From Bacteroidota bacterium (GTDB taxonomy: Bacteria; Bacteroidota; Ignavibacteria; Ignavibacteriales; Ignavibacteriaceae): DNA of 39,635 bases. The stretch covers positions 1 through 39,635 of the forward strand of contig JAKALM010000021.1 in assembly GCA_021824145.1 (NCBI GenBank), given 5' to 3'. A program made the position numbers and the translations under genes. Below the pieces are notes generated by a model. It was not told the DNA's origin. It ran no database searches and saw only the letters and a list, made by a program, of their open reading frames with translations. This document shows positions 1-17,970 of the stretch, piece by piece. The first letter of the stretch is position 1. Each line of letters begins with the position of its first letter.

Positions 1-115
1 CCAGATCGTATATTCTGATAGTTACTACCCACTTCGCTTTATGAACATCTATACCTATGAACAACTGTTTATTTTCAAAGAACGATTTTTCTGCTAACAC
101 TTCATTCTTTTTCAT
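1..115 (-). CDS. IS110-family transposase, N-terminal fragment (runs off the window)
   Basis: Reading the minus strand from an ATG at 113-115 gives about 38 residues before the window edge. They contain the stretch LFIGIDVHKAKWVV, the hallmark N-terminal strand of IS110/IS1111-family DEDD transposases, whose Asp is the first acidic catalytic residue. A strong Shine-Dalgarno sequence, AGGAGGT, lies just upstream of the ATG and fixes the start. The rest of the gene is outside the window, so completeness and subgroup (IS110 or IS1111) cannot be decided. It is transcribed away from the attC-like site at 198-407. IS110-family enzymes insert without classical terminal inverted repeats and are guided by an element-encoded bridge RNA. 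The family call is confident; activity is unknown. Confidence 0.88.
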   Translation of the reverse strand, partial: MKKNEVLAEKSFFENKQLFIGIDVHKAKWVVTIRIYDL

Positions 116-197
116 TTGAGACCTCCTTGAATCTTTATTTTTCTTTAAGGATATCTCAAAATAATTATTCCTTATATTTTAAACATACGTACTTGCC
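1..197 (-). mobile_element. Left part of an IS110-family insertion sequence
   Basis: The transposase start is followed upstream by about 80 bp of non-coding DNA (116-197) before the attC-like site begins. This stretch would be the 5' non-coding end of the element. The exact junction cannot be placed, because IS110 elements lack obvious inverted repeats and the other end is outside the window. A short 5' end would suit the IS1111 subgroup, which carries its bridge RNA beyond the transposase 3' end. In the IS110 subgroup the 5' non-coding end is longer and carries the bridge RNA. The boundary at 197 is therefore an inference from the start of the attC-like stem. Confidence 0.55.
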
Positions 198-407
198 GAT
201 AACCCGCCGCCCAGAACAGCAATGCAGATTAAAACGACAAAGCCAAAGGTTAAGCAAACTGCACTTATCTTACTTTGCAAGTGCAGTTTGCAACAATGTT
301 AATTAATAGAACAACCTTGAACAACAAACTTGTAACGGAACGACCAAGCCAATAATATTAAAATTGCCAAATGCGAAAAGGCGGTCGGGTTGATTGGCTG
401 GTTAGCT
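198..407 (-). repeat. Integron attC-like recombination site (candidate)
   Basis: Two arms 170 bp apart are complementary: AACCCGCCGCC at 201-211 and GGCGGTCGGGTT at 380-391. They form 11 base pairs with a single bulged T at 385, resembling the extrahelical bases of folded attC sites. A further GCC/GGC pairing flanks this stem (195-197 with 395-397), giving an outer box, an unpaired spacer and an inner stem. Outside it lies GTTAGCT (401-407), which reads AGCTAAC on the minus strand and resembles an attC R box with its AAC/GTT core, although it departs from the strict RYYYAAC consensus. The far R box is degenerate (GTTATCG on the minus strand), perhaps disturbed by the adjacent insertion sequence. 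At about 210 bp it is longer than usual attC sites. No database comparison was possible. Confidence 0.5.
254..291. repeat. Perfect 13-bp hairpin inside the attC-like site
   Basis: GCAAACTGCACTT (254-266) is the exact reverse complement of AAGTGCAGTTTGC (279-291), with a 12-base loop. It sits in the middle of the attC-like site, where folded attC sites carry their variable terminal structure. There is no T-run on either side, so a terminator is less likely. Confidence 0.75.
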
Positions 408-414
408 GTAATTT

Positions 415-1524
415 TTATTCTTCTGATTCAATTTCTTGATAATTAAATTCCATTTTACTTTGCAAAACAACTTCATCAAGTATTTGAACTAAATAACCTT
501 GCTTTATAGCTGATTGAAATCTTTCTTTTAGGGTGGGTATGTTTATTATTTCTTCGATACAATCCATATATTTTTCAACTACTGCTTCGATTGAATAAAT
601 TTTTATAGCATTTGCTTTGAGTTGTTTTAAAACAGCTTTATTTGTTTCTTCAGTTTTTATCACAAATGTGATAGGATATCTTTCAATTTTGTCAATATCT
701 AAAAAATATTTTTTTACATCCAACGTTTCAGTTACTTGGAAGAATCTGCCAAGAGGTTTCATTACAAAATCTATCCCACCATCATTTGCATTTGTTCTTC
801 CAGTTTTAAACAATTTCAGGTTATCTTCATTTATTTCATCTGGCTCAAAGCCCCAATATATTTTTTGATCGTGATAAAAATTTTTAAGAATAGCATAACT
901 TACAATTTCAAAAAGACGAGCATCAACATTTGGAGCTAATAAGTCCATAATAAATTTTTCAATTTTTGCAGTATCGTCATCTTTTAACTTTTGCATTTCT
1001 TCACAAGTTTGTATGAATCTTTCAAAAGATTCCATTTTAGTTTTTGTAAACTCATCTATAATTTCAATAATAGCTTTCGCAATATTAAAGTTCTTTTTAT
1101 CAATATTTATTTTTAGGAGAGCGTCATTGATCCAATATCTTTTGTTTACGTTAAAGATAACTTCAGGATTGTCTGGAAATTTATTTTGAAATTCTTTGTT
1201 AGTTCTATTATTAAAAGAATGATTTTGAATCTTTTCGCAAAATGGGAATTCTCTTGCTCTTTTTAGTAATGGAGTAAATCTTGCACCCTCATATTTTGAA
1301 TAATTACCTTCAACATCAAATTTATGATTAAGATAATCTTCGATAATTACATACATAGAATATAATGCAGCAAAGGCGGCTCGTGATTTAGAACCTTTAT
1401 TTGCTGATTTAGTTTTTAGATTTAGATATTGAAGTAGCGGACTTTTTTCAAAGATTTCTTCCCCATTTTCTTTAAAGTGTTTTTGCAGAATTTCTTTGAT
1501 TCTTTTCGTGAAAGTATGTTCCAT
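415..1524 (-). CDS. Type II restriction endonuclease partner of the adjacent methyltransferase
   Basis: A 369-residue protein starting at an ATG (1522-1524) that lies inside the end of the methyltransferase gene, a 53-base overlap implying translational coupling. The N-terminal half is Lys-rich and helical. The C-terminal part has a nuclease-like core: DGGIDF at about residues 248-253, then FFQVTET about ten residues later. This resembles the D...(E/Q)xK motif of PD-(D/E)XK nucleases of the Mrr-like type (GGID...QVK), but a Thr stands where Lys is usual. Position next to a beta-class methyltransferase is the main reason for the restriction call. If the methyltransferase recognises ATGCAT like its E. 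coli relative, this enzyme should cut the same sequence; that is inference. The gene ends just before the attC-like site, as expected of an integron cassette. Confidence 0.72.
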   Translation of the reverse strand: MEHTFTKRIKEILQKHFKENGEEIFEKSPLLQYLNLKTKSANKGSKSRAAFAALYSMYVIIEDYLNHKFDVEGNYSKYEGARFTPLLKRAREFPFCEKIQNHSFNNRTNKEFQNKFPDNPEVIFNVNKRYWINDALLKINIDKKNFNIAKAIIEIIDEFTKTKMESFERFIQTCEEMQKLKDDDTAKIEKFIMDLLAPNVDARLFEIVSYAILKNFYHDQKIYWGFEPDEINEDNLKLFKTGRTNANDGGIDFVMKPLGRFFQVTETLDVKKYFLDIDKIERYPITFVIKTEETNKAVLKQLKANAIKIYSIEAVVEKYMDCIEEIINIPTLKERFQSAIKQGYLVQILDEVVLQSKMEFNYQEIESEE

Positions 1525-2383
1525 AATTTGTCTCGAATAATTTAAATTGATCTGTATTAGTTTTTTGGAGTTCGTAAGTTTTTAATTCTCGTTCAAGTTT
1601 TTCACCTTTATAGGTGTCACTAAGCCCAAGTCTTCTTAATCCTATTTTTATATAATCTTCTTGTAACTCGATAGAAATGGATTTCCGGTGAAGTTTTTGT
1701 GCAACATAAGCAGTTGTAAAAGCACCGGCGAAAGGATCGAGAATAATATCACCTTCATTAGAACTAGCTTTTATAATTCTTTCTAATAGTGCAATTGGCT
1801 TCTGTGTTGGATGATTTTCATACTCTTCCATTCTGTATCTAACTCTTGGGTATTCCCAAACATTTCCGGGCACTTTTTCAGAGTTGTAAACTTGCGGCGG
1901 ATTTTTTCTATAATCTATTAGTTTTCGTTTTGCTCCAGTTTTTGCTTCAACTAATATTACATTTGAATTAAAAGTATAGTTGTTTGCATCTTTCACGCAG
2001 AATAAAATTGGCTCATACATTGAACCATAATATTTTTTTGCTTGGACACCAGAGCTGTCGTAATACCAAACAATCCTAGAAAGAATATTAATTTTATCTC
2101 TTAAAAATATATCGAAGAATGGCATAAATTGCGTAGAAGTCATTACATATAGGCTTCCGCTTTTTTTCAATTTCTTTACACATAGTTGAAGCCACTCATA
2201 ACACCATTCTAGATAATCCTCATCCTTATCCCATTTATCTTTATGTCCATTAAAATTTTTCCCAATGTTGTATGGTGGGTCAATAAAAATAAGGTCAATC
2301 GAATTATCGTCAACAAAATCTTTCAATACTTTTAGAGAATCACCATTTATAATTTTATGCTGTTCATTGCCCAAGAATTCCAT
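1472..2383 (-). CDS. Adenine-specific DNA methyltransferase, YhdJ-like
   Basis: A protein of about 303 residues that transfers a methyl group from S-adenosylmethionine to adenine in duplex DNA. The catalytic motif DPPYNIG lies near residue 36 and the cofactor motif DPFAGAFTT near residue 217, the motif IV-before-I order of beta-class N6 methyltransferases. Long blocks match my memory of E. coli YhdJ: YDSSGVQAKK.YGSMYEPIL, VEAKTG, DYRKNPPQ.YN, KVPGNVW, HPTQKP. YhdJ methylates ATGCAT, so the same specificity is likely here. The start is the ATG at 2381-2383, preceded by AAGGA at good spacing; a TTG one codon earlier is less likely. E. coli YhdJ is solitary, whereas this one overlaps a nuclease gene by 53 bases. 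The C-terminal 60 residues are Lys/Glu/Thr-rich and poorly conserved. Confidence 0.88.
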   Translation of the reverse strand: MEFLGNEQHKIINGDSLKVLKDFVDDNSIDLIFIDPPYNIGKNFNGHKDKWDKDEDYLEWCYEWLQLCVKKLKKSGSLYVMTSTQFMPFFDIFLRDKINILSRIVWYYDSSGVQAKKYYGSMYEPILFCVKDANNYTFNSNVILVEAKTGAKRKLIDYRKNPPQVYNSEKVPGNVWEYPRVRYRMEEYENHPTQKPIALLERIIKASSNEGDIILDPFAGAFTTAYVAQKLHRKSISIELQEDYIKIGLRRLGLSDTYKGEKLERELKTYELQKTNTDQFKLFETNYGTYFHEKNQRNSAKTL

Positions 2384-2648
2384 CAATTTTCCTTTTTTTC
2401 TCCAAATATAACCAATAATAAATTTTGAAGCATCCCTTAAATTTTAATTACAGCTAACATATATTTATACGGATTTGCATCCGTCTATTTTTTGCATATT
2501 ATCTTACACTTAATTCTTTATAATATGCAGTTAAACTTTTATTTATCACGACATAAATTCTTAAAAATATTTTATAATCACAATGTTTATTCCTGATAAA
2601 GTGCAAACTGACTAATTATTATAATCCTACCTCTTCTTGATAAATCCA
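2384..2648. other. Gap between integrase fragment and R-M genes: cassette boundary and two hairpins (attI candidate)
   Basis: No gene is seen. ATTACAGCTAAC at 2447-2458 is the inverted copy of GTTAGCTGTAAT at 401-412, so the R-M pair is bracketed by the same 12-bp core. Next to it is a small hairpin ACGGAT-TTGC-ATCCGT (2469-2484). Further toward the integrase is an inverted repeat with 10-bp arms, TGCATATTAT (2493-2502) and ATAATATGCA (2520-2529). In a reverse-oriented integron the primary recombination site attI would lie here, between the 3' end of intI and the first cassette. That role is inferred only from position. Confidence 0.45.
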
Positions 2649-3059
2649 TCAGTCTAATGGGCTTCTAACTCCGTGCAAATTTTCTATTATATGTGTGTAA
2701 ATCATTGTCGTACGTACAGATTTATGCCCTAATAATTCTTGTATCGTTCTTATATCGTATCCAGATTCCAGTAGGTGTGTCGCAAACGAATGTCTAAACG
2801 TATGTGCTGTACCTGGTTTTAAGATTTTTGCCTTTTGAACAGCTTGTCTTATTGCCTTCTGTACTGTACTCTCATGTACGTGGTTTCTGTATATTTTTCC
2901 GCTTTCTTTATCTTTTATAAATTTGTCCGCCGGAAAAGCATACTGCCAATAAAAATCTCTATTTGCATTTGGATATTTTTTTGATAATGCATAATGTATA
3001 ATTGTTTTGACTTTGTTCTCTACAAGATTTTTATTTTTATTTTGTGCTGATTCCGTCAT
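2649..3059 (-). pseudogene. intI: Integron integrase (IntI), C-terminal fragment
   Basis: A 136-residue ORF that matches only the last part of an IntI tyrosine recombinase. The segment [20 protein letters not shown] followed by [15 protein letters not shown] is the IntI-specific insert region that separates integron integrases from other XerC-like recombinases. [31 protein letters not shown] and MIYTH carry the second catalytic Arg, the His residues and the nucleophilic Tyr, and the ending GVRSPLD is typical. Full IntI proteins are about 320 residues. Here roughly the first 200, including the core-DNA-binding domain and the first catalytic Arg, are missing. I found no matching N-terminal sequence in the upstream 200 bases, so the ORF's own ATG and first dozen residues are probably accidental. 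It should not be an active recombinase alone. It reads in the same direction as the R-M genes. Confidence 0.87.
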
Positions 3060-3617
3060 TTCATTTAATCATATAAAAAAATAAAATCTCTTTATATTAT
3101 ATAGATGAAAATCCTTCCATCTTGGAAAAATATTTCATATTTTTTTAATTATTTTTTACCAATCTTCAAGATTTATTTTTCAATGGTGACTCGCCTTTAT
3201 CAACCCTGGTCTTAAGTCTAATTATAATATCAAACTTTCAATGGTTAAAACTTAAGTAAAATATTCATATATATAAACAAAAATATTTTTAAATCTCCTC
3301 TTCTTCCTTCCGCACTTTTTGTCCTTAACTTTTTTCAACATTCAAAATTCATAATATACTTTTCATCCAGTATCTGGAATCTGTTTTATTCCACACTCCC
3401 CATTCATTCGGCAATGCATTTTCTCAAGTTCCCGAATCAGAAATCCAGTTACAAGTATCTAGAATCCAGATTCCATCATCTATTCCTTCCTCCAATATTC
3501 CAAAACTCCATAATTCCTTTTTTCCCTTTGCTCTGCAACTTCATCCATCTTCCATGTTACATCTTCCATACTTCCGCTCTCCTTTTCCCTCCCAGAATCC
3601 AGAAATACAAGTAAATC

Positions 3618-3639
3618 TCTGAATATACTCTGAATATAC
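3618..3639. repeat. Tandem dimer of an 11-bp unit
   Basis: TCTGAATATAC occurs twice head-to-tail without mismatch (3618-3628, 3629-3639). It directly precedes the 22-bp tandem repeat. Confidence 0.85.
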
Positions 3640-14226: not shown

Positions 14227-15468
14227 ATGAAATACTTAAAAATATTTATAATAGTTTTACCGCTTTTCTTGCTGGCGGCTTGTTCAAACAAGCAAACAAA
14301 TCTGCAATCAGCTAGCACACAAGAAACTAAAACACTTTATACTTGCCCGATGCATCCTCAAATAATTTCGGATCATCCGGGAGTATGTCCAATTTGCGGA
14401 ATGCAGCTTGTTAAAGTTTCCAGCACTTCACAAAATCAAAATAATGATATGAAAGGAATGGTTACTTTGACAAACAACCAGGAAGTGCTTGCTAATGTTT
14501 CAACTATAAAAGTAAAAAAGGAAACTTTGCAAAAGCAATTAACAGCATACAGTCACTTAGATTTTGCAGAAGAAAATCAAAAAATGATTGCAGCAAGATT
14601 TAGCGGAAGAATTGAAAAGCTGTTTGTTGATAAAACCGGTGATTACATCAGCAAAGGAGAAAAACTATTTGAGATTTATAGTCCGGATTTAGTTCAAGCT
14701 CAAAATGAATATCTAATTGCTTTGGGAAATTCGAAATCACCGAACGGCAATAACTCACTTCTAAATTCTGCAAAGAAAAAATTAGAATTATTGGGAATTA
14801 CAGATGAGCAAATAAATGAGCTCGCAAAATCACATCAAGTAAAGTTAACATTAACTTATTTTTCACCTTACAGCGGAACTGTAATTGAGAAAAAGGTTGA
14901 AGAAGGAATGTATGTTAACGAAGGCAGCGAGATCTACAGCATTGCCGACCTTTCAACTATTTGGAATTTAGCAGATGTTTTTGAAAAAGATATAAGTGTT
15001 GTGAATGTTGGAAGTAAAGTGCAACTAAAACTTCAAGCTTATCCAGGACAAACTTTTGAAGGTAGAGTTGCATTTATTTATCCAGTTGTAAATCCGCAAG
15101 ACAGAACAATTAAAGTAAGAACCGTATTCTCAAATCCGCATGGATTATTAAAGCCTCAAATGTATGGCCAAACTATATTTGAAAAAGATTTTGGTGTTGG
15201 TTTAGTAGTTCCATCAGATGCAATTCTGTTCACAGGAAAAAGAAATATTGTTTGGGTGAAAATGCCTGATGGAATGTTTGCACCACATGATGTAACCGTG
15301 GGATTAAAATTTGATAACGGATATCAAATACTTTCAGGATTAAATGAAGGCGATGAAATTGCTGCAACTGGCGGATTCCTTATCGATTCAGAAAGCGAAT
15401 TGAAACAAAATGCAGGCAGCAATCAAATTGAAAGTAAATCTCAAAGTATGCCAGGAATGAAAATGTAA
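14227..15468 (+). CDS. cusB: Periplasmic adaptor CusB with N-terminal heavy-metal-binding domain
   Basis: A 413-residue membrane-fusion lipoprotein linking CusA to CusC. The ATG at 14227 is chosen over an in-frame TTG at 14197 because it follows AAGGAT and begins a clear lipoprotein signal, MKYLKIF...LLAAC, with lipid Cys19. Residues 38-63 form a heavy-metal-binding domain, YTCPMHP...GVCPICGMQLVKV, with four Cys, a His and two Met as ligands. An HlyD-like barrel/lipoyl core follows (KLFVDKTGDYISKGEKLFEI; the VEEGMYVNEGSEIYSI half), then the beta-barrel (LQAYPGQTFEGRV). The tail SMPGMKM is Met-rich. It is the third gene of the cusACB operon. Confidence 0.93.
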   Translation: MKYLKIFIIVLPLFLLAACSNKQTNLQSASTQETKTLYTCPMHPQIISDHPGVCPICGMQLVKVSSTSQNQNNDMKGMVTLTNNQEVLANVSTIKVKKETLQKQLTAYSHLDFAEENQKMIAARFSGRIEKLFVDKTGDYISKGEKLFEIYSPDLVQAQNEYLIALGNSKSPNGNNSLLNSAKKKLELLGITDEQINELAKSHQVKLTLTYFSPYSGTVIEKKVEEGMYVNEGSEIYSIADLSTIWNLADVFEKDISVVNVGSKVQLKLQAYPGQTFEGRVAFIYPVVNPQDRTIKVRTVFSNPHGLLKPQMYGQTIFEKDFGVGLVVPSDAILFTGKRNIVWVKMPDGMFAPHDVTVGLKFDNGYQILSGLNEGDEIAATGGFLIDSESELKQNAGSNQIESKSQSMPGMKM

Positions 15469-15531
15469 CTAAATCAAAAAATAAACTAAATAATTTGGCA
15501 GACGCCATTAACGTTAAGAAAGGAATACAAT

Positions 15532-15935: not shown

Positions 15936-16457
15936 ATGAAATATATTATTAGAACACTTATTGTAATTGCCGTTGTTGCAGCGGCTGGACTTATATTTTT
16001 ATACTCGGGCACATATAATATTAGCGCAATGGTTCCGCATAACAAAATAACATTGTGGATGATTCACAGGTTGACTGACAACTCGGAGGAGCACTATTCA
16101 AAAAATATTGTAGCTCCGAACTTAAATGATTCATCGATGGTAATGACAGGTTTTTTACATTATCGGGAAATGTGTCAAACTTGCCATGGTGCACCGGGAA
16201 TTGAACGGAGTGAAATAGGAAAAGGATTATATCCTCATCCGCCAAATCTCGCTCATTCTGCTAAGGAAATGCCACCTTCAATGTTATTTTGGATTACAAA
16301 AAATGGAATTAAAATGACAGGCATGCCAGCTTTTGGAAAAACTCATACTGATGATAAAATTTGGGATATCGTCGCTTTTTTGGAAAAGCTTCCCAATATG
16401 ACTAAAGAGCAATATCAATTGCTTGATGATGCTACAAAAGGTAAAAGCGTCGAATAA
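15936..16457 (+). CDS. Membrane-anchored monohaem cytochrome c
   Basis: A 173-residue protein with one N-terminal membrane helix (residues 5-25) and a periplasmic class I cytochrome c domain. Haem is bound by CQTCH (Cys80, Cys83, His84), with Met130 in KMTGMPAFG as the likely sixth ligand. The ending DDKIWDIVAFLEKLP is the usual C-terminal helix. It follows the cus genes in the same direction after 62 bases and ends at a strong hairpin, so it probably closes that operon. Its electron partner is not evident; periplasmic Cu(I) oxidation is one possibility suggested only by context. Confidence 0.88.
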   Translation: MKYIIRTLIVIAVVAAAGLIFLYSGTYNISAMVPHNKITLWMIHRLTDNSEEHYSKNIVAPNLNDSSMVMTGFLHYREMCQTCHGAPGIERSEIGKGLYPHPPNLAHSAKEMPPSMLFWITKNGIKMTGMPAFGKTHTDDKIWDIVAFLEKLPNMTKEQYQLLDDATKGKSVE

Positions 16458-16512: not shown

Positions 16513-17970
16513 TTAATCAATCTTAGGAATTTTACCCAATACATCTTCAATTGTTAGATTTTTAATTTCACCAAGATTTAACTTTTTTATTCCATCTTCT
16601 ATTTTTGACCTATCACCTACTACAACAACAATCATCTGATCTGGTAAAATATATTTTTGCGCAGCTTTATCAATAACATCGGCATTCAATTTTAAAACAT
16701 TTGATATGTAATCATTGAAATAATTTTCGGGCAGATTGTACTCTACCATTGATTCTATTCCATAAGCTATATTTGCCACTGTTTGAAAATTATTAGGATA
16801 GCTTAGCGCAATATAATTTTTACCTCGATTTATTTCGTCTTCAGATATTGGATTTCTAATTCCATTAAGTTCATTAAAAAATTCTGTCAACGATTTGTCG
16901 GTTACTTCTGTCTGCACAGAAGATGTCGCAATAAATGGGCCAGCAGCTTCTCTGAAATCAAAATATGAATGAGCTCCATAAGTATAACCATGCTTTTCAC
17001 GGAGATTCATATTTATTCTAGATGAAAATGAGCCGCCAAGAATAGCATTCATAACATTTATTGCATTAAAATCCTCATTTGTTCTTGGAACTCCAACTCT
17101 GCCAATATATATTACTGATTGAGGAGCGCCGGGTTTGTCAATTAAATAAACAATACGTTTAGCAACTTGAGGTGCATCATTTAGTTTTTCTATTTTGACT
17201 TCACCTTTTTGCCAACTGCCAAAAGCTGATTCTAACTTAGATTTCAGCTCATTTTTACTTATATCTCCAACAGCAACTATAAAAGCATTGTTTGATTTGA
17301 AATATTTATCATGGAAATTTTTCAAATTATTACTGGTAAAACTTTTAATAGAACTTTCATTTCCAAAAGATGACCTGCCATAAGGATAATCTTTACCGAA
17401 AAGTAATTTGTTAAAAGCAACACTTGCAATTATAGTAGGCTGATCGTGCCACTGCATTAAAGAAGTTAATCTTTCTTTTTGCTTTCTTGCCAGTTCTTTT
17501 GCAGGGAAATCTGGTCGAAGAATAATATCAGATAGTATCTTTAATGCATCATCAAATTTAGAATACGGCGTGTGAAGCGAAATGCTTGAAAAGTGATAAC
17601 CTGCTGCTGATCTAATTCTTACACCAAGGAAATCAATTGCGTCGGAAAGTTCAAGCGAACTTTTATTTGCCGCTCCTTCCATTAGCATATCCATTGCCAT
17701 ACTTGCTTCCCCGGCTTTATCTTTGGGGTCATTCACAGTGCCAGCATGTATTACAACATTCAACTGTACTAATGGGACCTGGTGTTTTTCCATCAAATAA
17801 ACTTTTAAACCATTCGAAAGTTCGAAATTCTGAATTGATGGAAGATTTAATTTCGATGGCGGAGGTAATTTAGGCGGTTCGTTCCTATTAACATCTTGAG
17901 CTAATGAATTATTAAACATAACTGATAACAAAATAAAATTAATGATAAAAAATATTTTTAGGTTTTTCAT
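16513..17970 (-). CDS. M16-family zinc peptidase homologue, non-catalytic partner
   Basis: A 485-residue secreted M16 protein with a signal peptide (to about residue 24, NNSLAQ). It has the two M16 halves, but the zinc motif HxxEH is absent: where it should be, the sequence reads KAGEASMAMDMLMEGA. The C-terminal half keeps the substrate-binding stretch LREKHGYTYGAHSYF. This is the usual pattern of the inactive subunit in two-gene M16 peptidases. The catalytic partner lies immediately upstream with one base between them, and the two products very likely form a periplasmic heterodimer. The stop lies nine bases from the terminator hairpin. Confidence 0.9.
   Translation of the reverse strand: MKNLKIFFIINFILLSVMFNNSLAQDVNRNEPPKLPPPSKLNLPSIQNFELSNGLKVYLMEKHQVPLVQLNVVIHAGTVNDPKDKAGEASMAMDMLMEGAANKSSLELSDAIDFLGVRIRSAAGYHFSSISLHTPYSKFDDALKILSDIILRPDFPAKELARKQKERLTSLMQWHDQPTIIASVAFNKLLFGKDYPYGRSSFGNESSIKSFTSNNLKNFHDKYFKSNNAFIVAVGDISKNELKSKLESAFGSWQKGEVKIEKLNDAPQVAKRIVYLIDKPGAPQSVIYIGRVGVPRTNEDFNAINVMNAILGGSFSSRINMNLREKHGYTYGAHSYFDFREAAGPFIATSSVQTEVTDKSLTEFFNELNGIRNPISEDEINRGKNYIALSYPNNFQTVANIAYGIESMVEYNLPENYFNDYISNVLKLNADVIDKAAQKYILPDQMIVVVVGDRSKIEDGIKKLNLGEIKNLTIEDVLGKIPKID

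What the first reader, a model, noticed from the sequence alone, without database searches (positions are those of the whole stretch)
195..407. Oversized attC-like fold with a bulged base and an internal 13-bp hairpin
The stem AACCCG-CCGCC/GGCGG(T)CGGGTT with one extrahelical T, an outer GCC/GGC box separated by a short unpaired spacer, and a perfect hairpin (254-291) in the middle reproduce the single-strand architecture of attC. The site is about 210 bp, beyond the usual range, and its R box is not a strict consensus match. It could be a lineage-specific attC class.
Basis: partly seen in the sequence, partly recalled or inferred. Interest (0 to 1): 0.6.

Follow-up and report, generated by a model that had tools for sequence, protein, structure and literature searches.

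The report
Extra-long integron attC, interrupted by IS110
This is a real integron recombination site (attC), one of a family of unusually long sites, about 190 or 225 bases, found in many members of one bacterial order; in this genome it closes a restriction-modification gene cassette and has been cut by an insertion sequence.

Summary
The fold is real and is an attC, read on the minus strand (window 193-407). It ends a two-gene restriction-modification cassette that starts at 2457, beside an attI-like region and the C-terminal remnant of an integron integrase (2649-3059). Relatives carry integrases with arrays of the same site: 72 sites, 0 in the reversed control. Over 60 sites the arm helix pairs in 96% of cells, 12 of 16 pairs show double compensatory changes, and RNAalifold predicts the same 16 pairs. 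Two extrahelical bases are kept: A in 60/60, C in 58/60. Cassette starts match the R'' of their own attC (0 of 2000 shuffles). An architecture-only search gives 186-232 nt here (n=35) against 57-110 nt in other phyla (n=21). A lineage motif hits 21 of 40 genomes of the order and 0 of 355 others of the phylum. The odd R box is explained: an IS110-family end separates L' from R', as in five relatives. Verdict: a new long variant of attC; here site and integrase are probably dead. Folding energies did not show a bottom-strand preference for the class.

The parts
193..407 (-). attC of the restriction-modification cassette, without R' (closest intact homologue 225 nt)
   Evidence: copy L065:12440-12664 with R' present, 89% identical over 215 of the 221 query bases
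401..407 (-). R'' box AGCTAAC
393..398 (-). outer arm (spacer) helix, 5' side; pairs with 195-200
392..392 (-). extrahelical base (C on minus, G on plus); C in 58 of 60 sites
386..391 (-). L'' helix AACCCG; pairs with 201-206
385..385 (-). extrahelical base (A on minus, T on plus); A in 60 of 60 sites
380..384 (-). inner arm helix CCGCC; pairs with 207-211
195..211 (-). L' side of the arms, GGCGG-CGGGTT-ATCGGC
212..379 (-). long variable terminal structure (168 nt)
254..291 (-). apical 13-bp hairpin in the variable terminal structure; covaries in part of the longer class
1..192 (-). left end of an IS110-family element (transposase start at 115, running off the contig), inserted between L' and R' of the attC; family by likeness to relatives, the 38 residues alone match no Pfam model
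415..1524 (-). type II restriction endonuclease, second gene of the cassette
   Evidence: PDLC03455 REase_II, 485 bits; no Pfam or NCBIfam match
1472..2386 (-). adenine-specific DNA methyltransferase, first gene of the cassette
   Evidence: PF01555, 201 bits; NF008572, 478 bits
2457..2458 (-). recombination point G|TTAGCTG at attI; the cassette starts at 2457 and its first 12 nt match the complement of its own attC R'' region
2458..2648 (-). attI-side region, identical to that of L047 in 167 of 194 aligned columns up to the junction, then unrelated
2649..3059 (-). integron integrase remnant, C-terminal part only (homology 2652-3032; about 216 N-terminal residues missing)

Best explanation
The element is the attC site of an integron cassette. 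In a live copy the bottom strand (the window's + strand) would fold into a hairpin whose arms (R''/R', a 6-bp spacer helix, L''/L', two extrahelical bases G and T) are bound by the integron integrase, cut between G and TT of R', and joined to attI or to another attC, so that the gene block moves as a circle. Shown here by sequence: the architecture, its covariation, its linkage to integrases in relatives, the cassette-circle signature, and the two main lengths (45 of 72 sites are 185-190 nt and 17 are 216-226 nt). Inferred: strand choice, cutting and joining, which follow from what is known of IntI and attC. The integrase is transcribed towards attI, in the direction of the cassettes, as in Treponema. 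In this genome the system is decaying: the integrase keeps only its C-terminal third, and an attC-targeting IS110-family element has separated L' from R', so this site is probably inactive.
For: Integrase remnant: TIGR02249, 177 bits, profile positions 185-313 of 315 (below the 265-bit whole-protein cut-off, as expected of a fragment); intact relatives L044 and L065 score 429 and 414 bits; best solved relative of the alignment is IntI4, 2a3v. 72 sites, 0 in the reversed control; 70 of them share a region with an integrase match, all 70 on its strand and 68 downstream of it. Covariation; apical hairpin. Own-circle complementarity: mean run 6.83 nt against 3.63 for the next cassette and 3.46 shuffled, 0 of 2000 (46 cassettes); 12 nt for the window cassette. 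Same attI side with a different first cassette in L047: 167/194 identical up to G|TT, 20/60 after. The arms have ensemble probability 0.48 on the bottom strand of the window site.
Against: Predicted folding is not uniformly good: the arms appear in the minimum-energy fold of only 25 of 72 bottom strands and 21 of 72 top strands, and the bottom strand is the more stable in only 19 of 72; bottom exceeds top in arm probability in 23 of 60. So folding energies alone do not show the bottom-strand preference known for many attCs. 12 of 33 regions with an integrase match gave no called site; 7 of these hold under 1.7 kb downstream, but 5 hold 7 to 17 kb. In one of those five, L057, blastn finds a cut-off site on the strand opposite to the integrase, upstream of it. 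The lineage motif has 0 exact hits in the window's own genome, and the one named relative examined (Melioribacteraceae MAG, G080) gave a single weak site of about 130 nt. No recombination was measured. That no intact integrase exists elsewhere in this genome rests on a draft of 95% completeness; the next matches (31-56% identity over short stretches) were read as Xer-type without a test.
Confidence: 0.93

Rival explanations
1. A dispersed palindromic repeat (REP- or MITE-like) that happens to lie between genes and is not a recombination site.
For: Copies are dispersed in G000 contigs C5 and C32, and a separate palindromic insert does recur inside four attCs of L062.
Against: Sites lie on the integrase strand in arrays; cassette ends match their own R'' rather than that of the neighbour; a pair of extrahelical bases is kept; the attI-side junction falls at G|TT.
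Confidence: 0.02
2. The conserved structure is kept mainly for its RNA form, for example as a terminator or a translation-affecting hairpin between cassette genes, and recombination is secondary.
For: Cassette genes can end directly at R'' (the window's endonuclease stops 7 bases before it); the variable terminal structure is itself partly conserved (0.82-0.86 bits per column) and its apical hairpin covaries.
Against: The arms carry more information (1.26 and 1.34 bits), and the fixed positions include the AAC/GTT core and the extrahelical bases; the terminal structure shows no coding periodicity and RNAalifold predicts no shared pair inside it; no Rfam family reached its gathering score in the window.
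Confidence: 0.07
3. A site still active in this genome, recombined in trans by an unassembled integrase, the IS being only an assembly-edge artefact.
For: The contig ends inside the IS (window position 1), so the junction is seen from one side only; the assembly is 95% complete.
Against: The same IS end follows the same attC position in 5 relatives, 3 of which show the rest of the site beyond the right end of the IS, so the junction is natural; no other IntI was recognised in this genome.
Confidence: 0.06

Closest known systems
attC sites of mobile and sedentary chromosomal integrons (including the Vibrio VCR type)
   Same: R''/R' with G|TT core, L''/L', extrahelical bases on one side, variable terminal structure, location at cassette ends
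   Different: Published range 57-141 bp, sedentary-integron sites predominantly 120-129 bp because of Vibrio (PMC5371416, passages read); here two main lengths near 188 and 223 nt, and the spacer between R and L is a paired, covarying 6-bp helix. That such a helix is unusual is recalled, not searched
Treponema chromosomal integrons
   Same: Integrase transcribed towards attI, in the direction of the cassettes (PMC3607928, passages read)
   Different: attC lengths of 63-132 bp are given there; the sites were not compared by sequence here
Integrons of Chlorobi and Ignavibacteriae reported by IntegronFinder
   Same: Complete integrons in this branch are already reported (PMC9024848, passage read)
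   Different: The passages read say nothing of site length or of a site class there
IS1111-family insertion sequences that target attC (ISKpn4, ISPst6)
   Same: DEDD transposase, longer non-coding region behind the transposase gene, insertion at one end of attC (PMC11187229, passages read)
   Different: Here in another bacterial lineage; insertion falls between L' and R' after CAA; a second IS family is found at either end of the site. No sequence comparison with ISKpn4 or ISPst6 was made

Membership tests
integron attC site | R'' (RYYYAAC-like) and R' with G|TT core | tested here: met
   Met for the class: the AAC/GTT pairs stand in 59-60 of 60 sites (the window row and L068:4859 are the exceptions, both cut by an IS). 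In the window copy R' is displaced by the IS, so that copy shows R'' only
integron attC site | paired L''/L' kept by compensatory change | tested here: met
   12 of 16 arm pairs with double changes
integron attC site | extrahelical bases on one side of the arm | tested here: met
   A 60/60, C 58/60
integron attC site | linkage to an integron integrase (IntI) | tested here: met
   21 of 33 regions with an integrase match have called sites; remnant in the window
integron attC site | flanks mobile cassettes, with circle signature | tested here: met
integron attC site | length within the published 57-141 bp | tested here: not met
   64 of 67 sites are 185-237 nt. Length is descriptive rather than defining, so this makes it a variant, not a non-member
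integron attC site | bottom strand recombined by IntI | not testable with these tools
   needs a recombination assay; energies are ambiguous
integron integrase | full-length IntI | tested here: not met
   window copy keeps profile positions 185-313 of 315 only; full-length in relatives
IS110/IS1111 family (attC-targeting) | DEDD_Tnp_IS110 and Transposase_20 domains | tested here: inconclusive
   met in the relative L181 (PF01548 and PF02371); the 38 residues left in the window match no model

The most novel reading that the evidence does not exclude
The order carries a distinct structural class of attC, with a paired spacer helix and a large, partly conserved terminal structure of two set lengths, co-adapted with its own integrase clade; the terminal structure works as an active module (for example a platform for a host factor or a switch that restricts folding to replication or transfer) rather than as a passive loop.
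Probability: 0.2. Interest if true: 0.65.

Novelty: new variant of a known kind. Interest (0 to 1): 0.5.

Why it matters
Most of these sites are a third to three fifths longer than the top of the published range (141 bp, PMC5371416), and they come mainly in two sizes. Tools tuned to shorter sites may miss some (that IntegronFinder has an upper limit of 200 nt is recalled, not read), so integrons of this order may be undercounted. The sites give a natural test of how the loop of an attC controls folding and cassette mobility, and another lineage in which IS110-family elements home on attC.

Tried and rejected
REP- or MITE-like repeat, RNA element and coding explanations were considered: Rfam gave no match at gathering thresholds in the window; the terminal structure has no three-base periodicity, and stop-free frames over the whole site are rare (5, 3 and 2 of 72 in the best three frames). 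Two early scripts picked wrong anchors or stopped with an error and were replaced. One match at G000:C1:11709 (E 8.9e-4) lies inside a stretch of genes in which I saw no attC features on reading and was dropped. Minimum-energy folding was tried as a test of strand preference and was inconclusive. The genome-contig scan (80 best loci kept, more existed) returned one named Melioribacteraceae locus; its genome gave only one weak site of about 130 nt. A PDB search with the restriction enzyme found nothing at E 0.01. The literature was searched with 'attC / integron / Ignavibacteria', 'attC sites / longer than 200 / IntegronFinder', 'attC / in length / integron / Bacteroidetes / inverted integron integrase', 'integron / Melioribacter', 'attC / Ignavibacterium' and 'attC / Chlorobi / integron': no title or abstract start that I saw reports a long attC class in this group, but I read only passages of seven papers, and most subscription papers are not held.

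Rows left out before counts: alignment A2 holds 60 of the 72 sites; the 12 left out are L044:8071, L055:4740, L062:19655, L068:6732, three of L070, three of L071 and two of L161 (degenerate, IS-interrupted or badly anchored). The window row of A2 (183-407) includes 10 bases of the IS, and L068:4859 begins with an IS end. A3 holds 11 of the 12 hairpins located, which were picked by eye from the 25 sites over 200 nt; two of five measures are not clearly above shuffled (pairs with a double change 37 of 500, pair types 177 of 500). A4 holds 88 of the 106 cassette ORFs of 75 aa or more. The cassette test kept all 46 neighbouring pairs of the 67-site set, degenerate ones included. The arm probabilities use 14 of the 16 arm pairs. 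IS junctions were read in 6 relatives (L164-L169); L170-L172, matched in the transposase part only, and the other weaker matches (16 of 80 genomes matched) were not read.

Full report
What is there. The window is one whole contig (C5) of a 3.48-Mb draft genome in 37 contigs (contig length). Then, from 192 to the contig end, comes the left end of an IS110-family element.

The observation. Every letter of the described arms is in place and the 13-bp hairpin is exact. The reading needs four corrections; the main ones are that the attC top strand is the minus strand, that there are two extrahelical bases (385 and 392), and that R' is absent because an IS is in the way.

Homologues. A search with the integrase remnant gave matches at E <= 1e-15 in 62 of 80 genomes of the family, the window's own included; the many near 1e-16, over about 60 residues, look like Xer recombinases rather than IntI (not tested). 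I fetched 32 regions. blastn showed copies of the site spaced along arrays in many of them, the closest with 89% identity over 215 of 221 bases in L065. A two-block profile then found 67 sites with 0 in the reversed sequence, and 72 after retraining, again with 0 in 831,428 control bases. Of the 72, 70 share a region with an integrase match; all 70 are on its strand and 68 are downstream, the two exceptions being degenerate sites in L070 beside an 83-residue fragment. So the integrase is transcribed in the direction of the cassettes, as in Treponema (PMC3607928, passages). Against this: 12 of 33 regions with an integrase match gave no called site. Seven of them hold under 1.7 kb downstream (in L046 a site is cut off by my stretch), but five hold 7 to 17 kb, and in one of these, L057, a cut-off site lies on the opposite strand, upstream of the integrase at the contig end.

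Structure. In 60 aligned sites the 16-pair arm helix is paired in 96.3% of cells and 12 pairs have double compensatory changes; with five R''/R' pairs included the total is 95.2%, with 0 of 500 shuffles as high, and slid versions fall to 24-45%. The outermost R pair counted (columns 3 and 311) is unpaired in 22 of 60, as expected if R' belongs to the next cassette. RNAalifold, given only the alignment, predicts exactly the 16 arm pairs. The extrahelical A is kept in 60 of 60 and the C in 58 of 60. The stretch between R and L is here a 6-bp helix with some of the strongest covariation. Part of the longer class carries a further stem at the top of the hairpin, which covaries too (9 of 13 pairs with double changes, 90.9% of cells paired, 0 of 500 for cells paired and for the covariation score, 11 picked sites).

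Recombination signature. A cassette that travels as a circle should begin with the complement of its own R''. Over 46 neighbouring pairs the matching run is 6.83 nt on average, against 3.63 for the next cassette and 3.46 for shuffled pairs, and 0 of 2000 shuffles reach it. The window cassette matches over 12 nt. The attI side of the window is identical to that of L047 in 167 of 194 columns up to G|TT and unrelated after it (20 of 60 positions): one attI, two different first cassettes.

Length. 20 of 67 sites exceed 200 nt, the median is 188, and three are under 185 (142, 149 and 165). In the 72-site set 45 are 185-190 nt and 17 are 216-226 nt. To avoid a lineage-trained profile I searched by architecture alone, allowing 50-320 nt. 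At the higher threshold there were 35 lineage sites of 186-232 nt (in 15 of 35 sequences) against 21 sites of 57-110 nt in 13 of 79 loci of other phyla. At the lower threshold there were 38 lineage sites (36 of 186-232 nt, one of 164 and one of 67) against 29 of 57-131 nt. Control hits were 0 throughout. The architecture was drawn from this lineage, so other-phylum sites with other arms are missed. The published range is 57-141 bp (PMC5371416, passages). A 28-base motif of the L'-R' end is present in 21 of 40 genomes of the order (6 of 14 of the family, the window's own genome included with none; 15 of 26 of the rest) and in 0 of 355 others of the phylum. Around 20 of those hits a loosened profile finds 25 sites in 18 of the 20 loci, with a median of 188 nt and a range of 101-257, 0 in control.

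Folding. The window site has an arm probability of 0.48 on the bottom strand and 0.16 on the top. The class as a whole is less clear: the median bottom-strand probability is 0.007 (40 of 60 at 1e-3 or more) against 0.012 for the top, bottom exceeds top in 23 of 60, and the bottom strand has the lower energy in 19 of 72. Published Vibrio sites also show more stable top strands (PMC5371416, passages).

Cargo. 69 cassettes were outlined, 65 with the longest ORF on the cassette strand, 1 on the other and 3 without an ORF of 60 aa. The 88 ORFs scanned match 77 Pfam families, 25 of which were listed, among them methyltransferases and the toxin families BrnT, ParE, RelE and HepT.

The interrupted end. 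The IS left end GTACGTAT follows ..CAA of an attC L' arm in the window and in five relatives (L165/179, L166/178, L167/181, L168/182, L169/180); in L165/179 only about 16 bases of the L' side are left. A sixth relative, L164/183, has the related end a few bases further on, after CACCG. In three relatives (L180, L181, L182) the right end is seen, followed by CACGYCGTTA, the other half of the site. The element encodes an IS110-family transposase of 368 residues in L181, followed by a non-coding region that holds CTAACGGCGTG, the complement of the attC R' end (CACGCCGTTAG), in L178, L181 and L182; a further copy of this stretch lies at L180:1362, but the element in L180 at 2314 lacks it. That this is the guide part of a seekRNA is inferred. 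A second IS110-like family in the same genome (end ACTTATTGGAAATAT; PF01548) is inserted at either end of attCs.

Where it belongs. By the tests above the class is a member of attC; it differs in length and in its paired spacer, so I call it a new variant. The nearest named integrase (70% identity) is from a Melioribacteraceae MAG (Ignavibacteriales), so an Ignavibacteria-like host is likely but not shown. Integrons in Ignavibacteriae are already in print (PMC9024848, passage).

Every count was held against its call; one search added the tally of regions without sites and the opposite-strand site of L057.

Noticed in passing
window 1-192; L178, L181, L182: An IS110-family element with its non-coding region behind the transposase gene inserts between L' and R' of attCs in this lineage; in L178, L181 and L182 that region carries an 11-base complement of the attC R' end, a possible guide.
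   Followed up: partly
L005:1-275; L161:5802 and 6915; L068:4852; L070:937; L056:11523: A second IS110-like family (end ACTTATTGGAAATAT) is inserted at either the R'' or the R' end of attC sites; in L056 the neighbour is only attC-like, and one further copy (L162:752) has no attC beside it on reading.
   Followed up: partly
L005:276-3070 and L161:4945-6930 (contig C32 of the same genome): Both ends of contig C32 carry further cassettes and attC sites or remnants, including an aquaporin-like gene and BrnT-like genes (the one in L005 below Pfam's cut-off); no integrase was seen there.
   Followed up: partly
window 3466-3620: Intergenic stretch upstream of the integrase remnant is 98-99% identical to the first 155 bases of contigs C16 and C1: a repeat at assembly breaks.
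   Followed up: no
L062:14365-14581, 15282-15499, 16201-16418 and 17196-17411: A palindromic insert of about 30 bases (CAGCCAAAGGCTGATGAGCCTTTGGCTC-like) sits at the same place inside four attCs of one array, and in an attC of L183.
   Followed up: no
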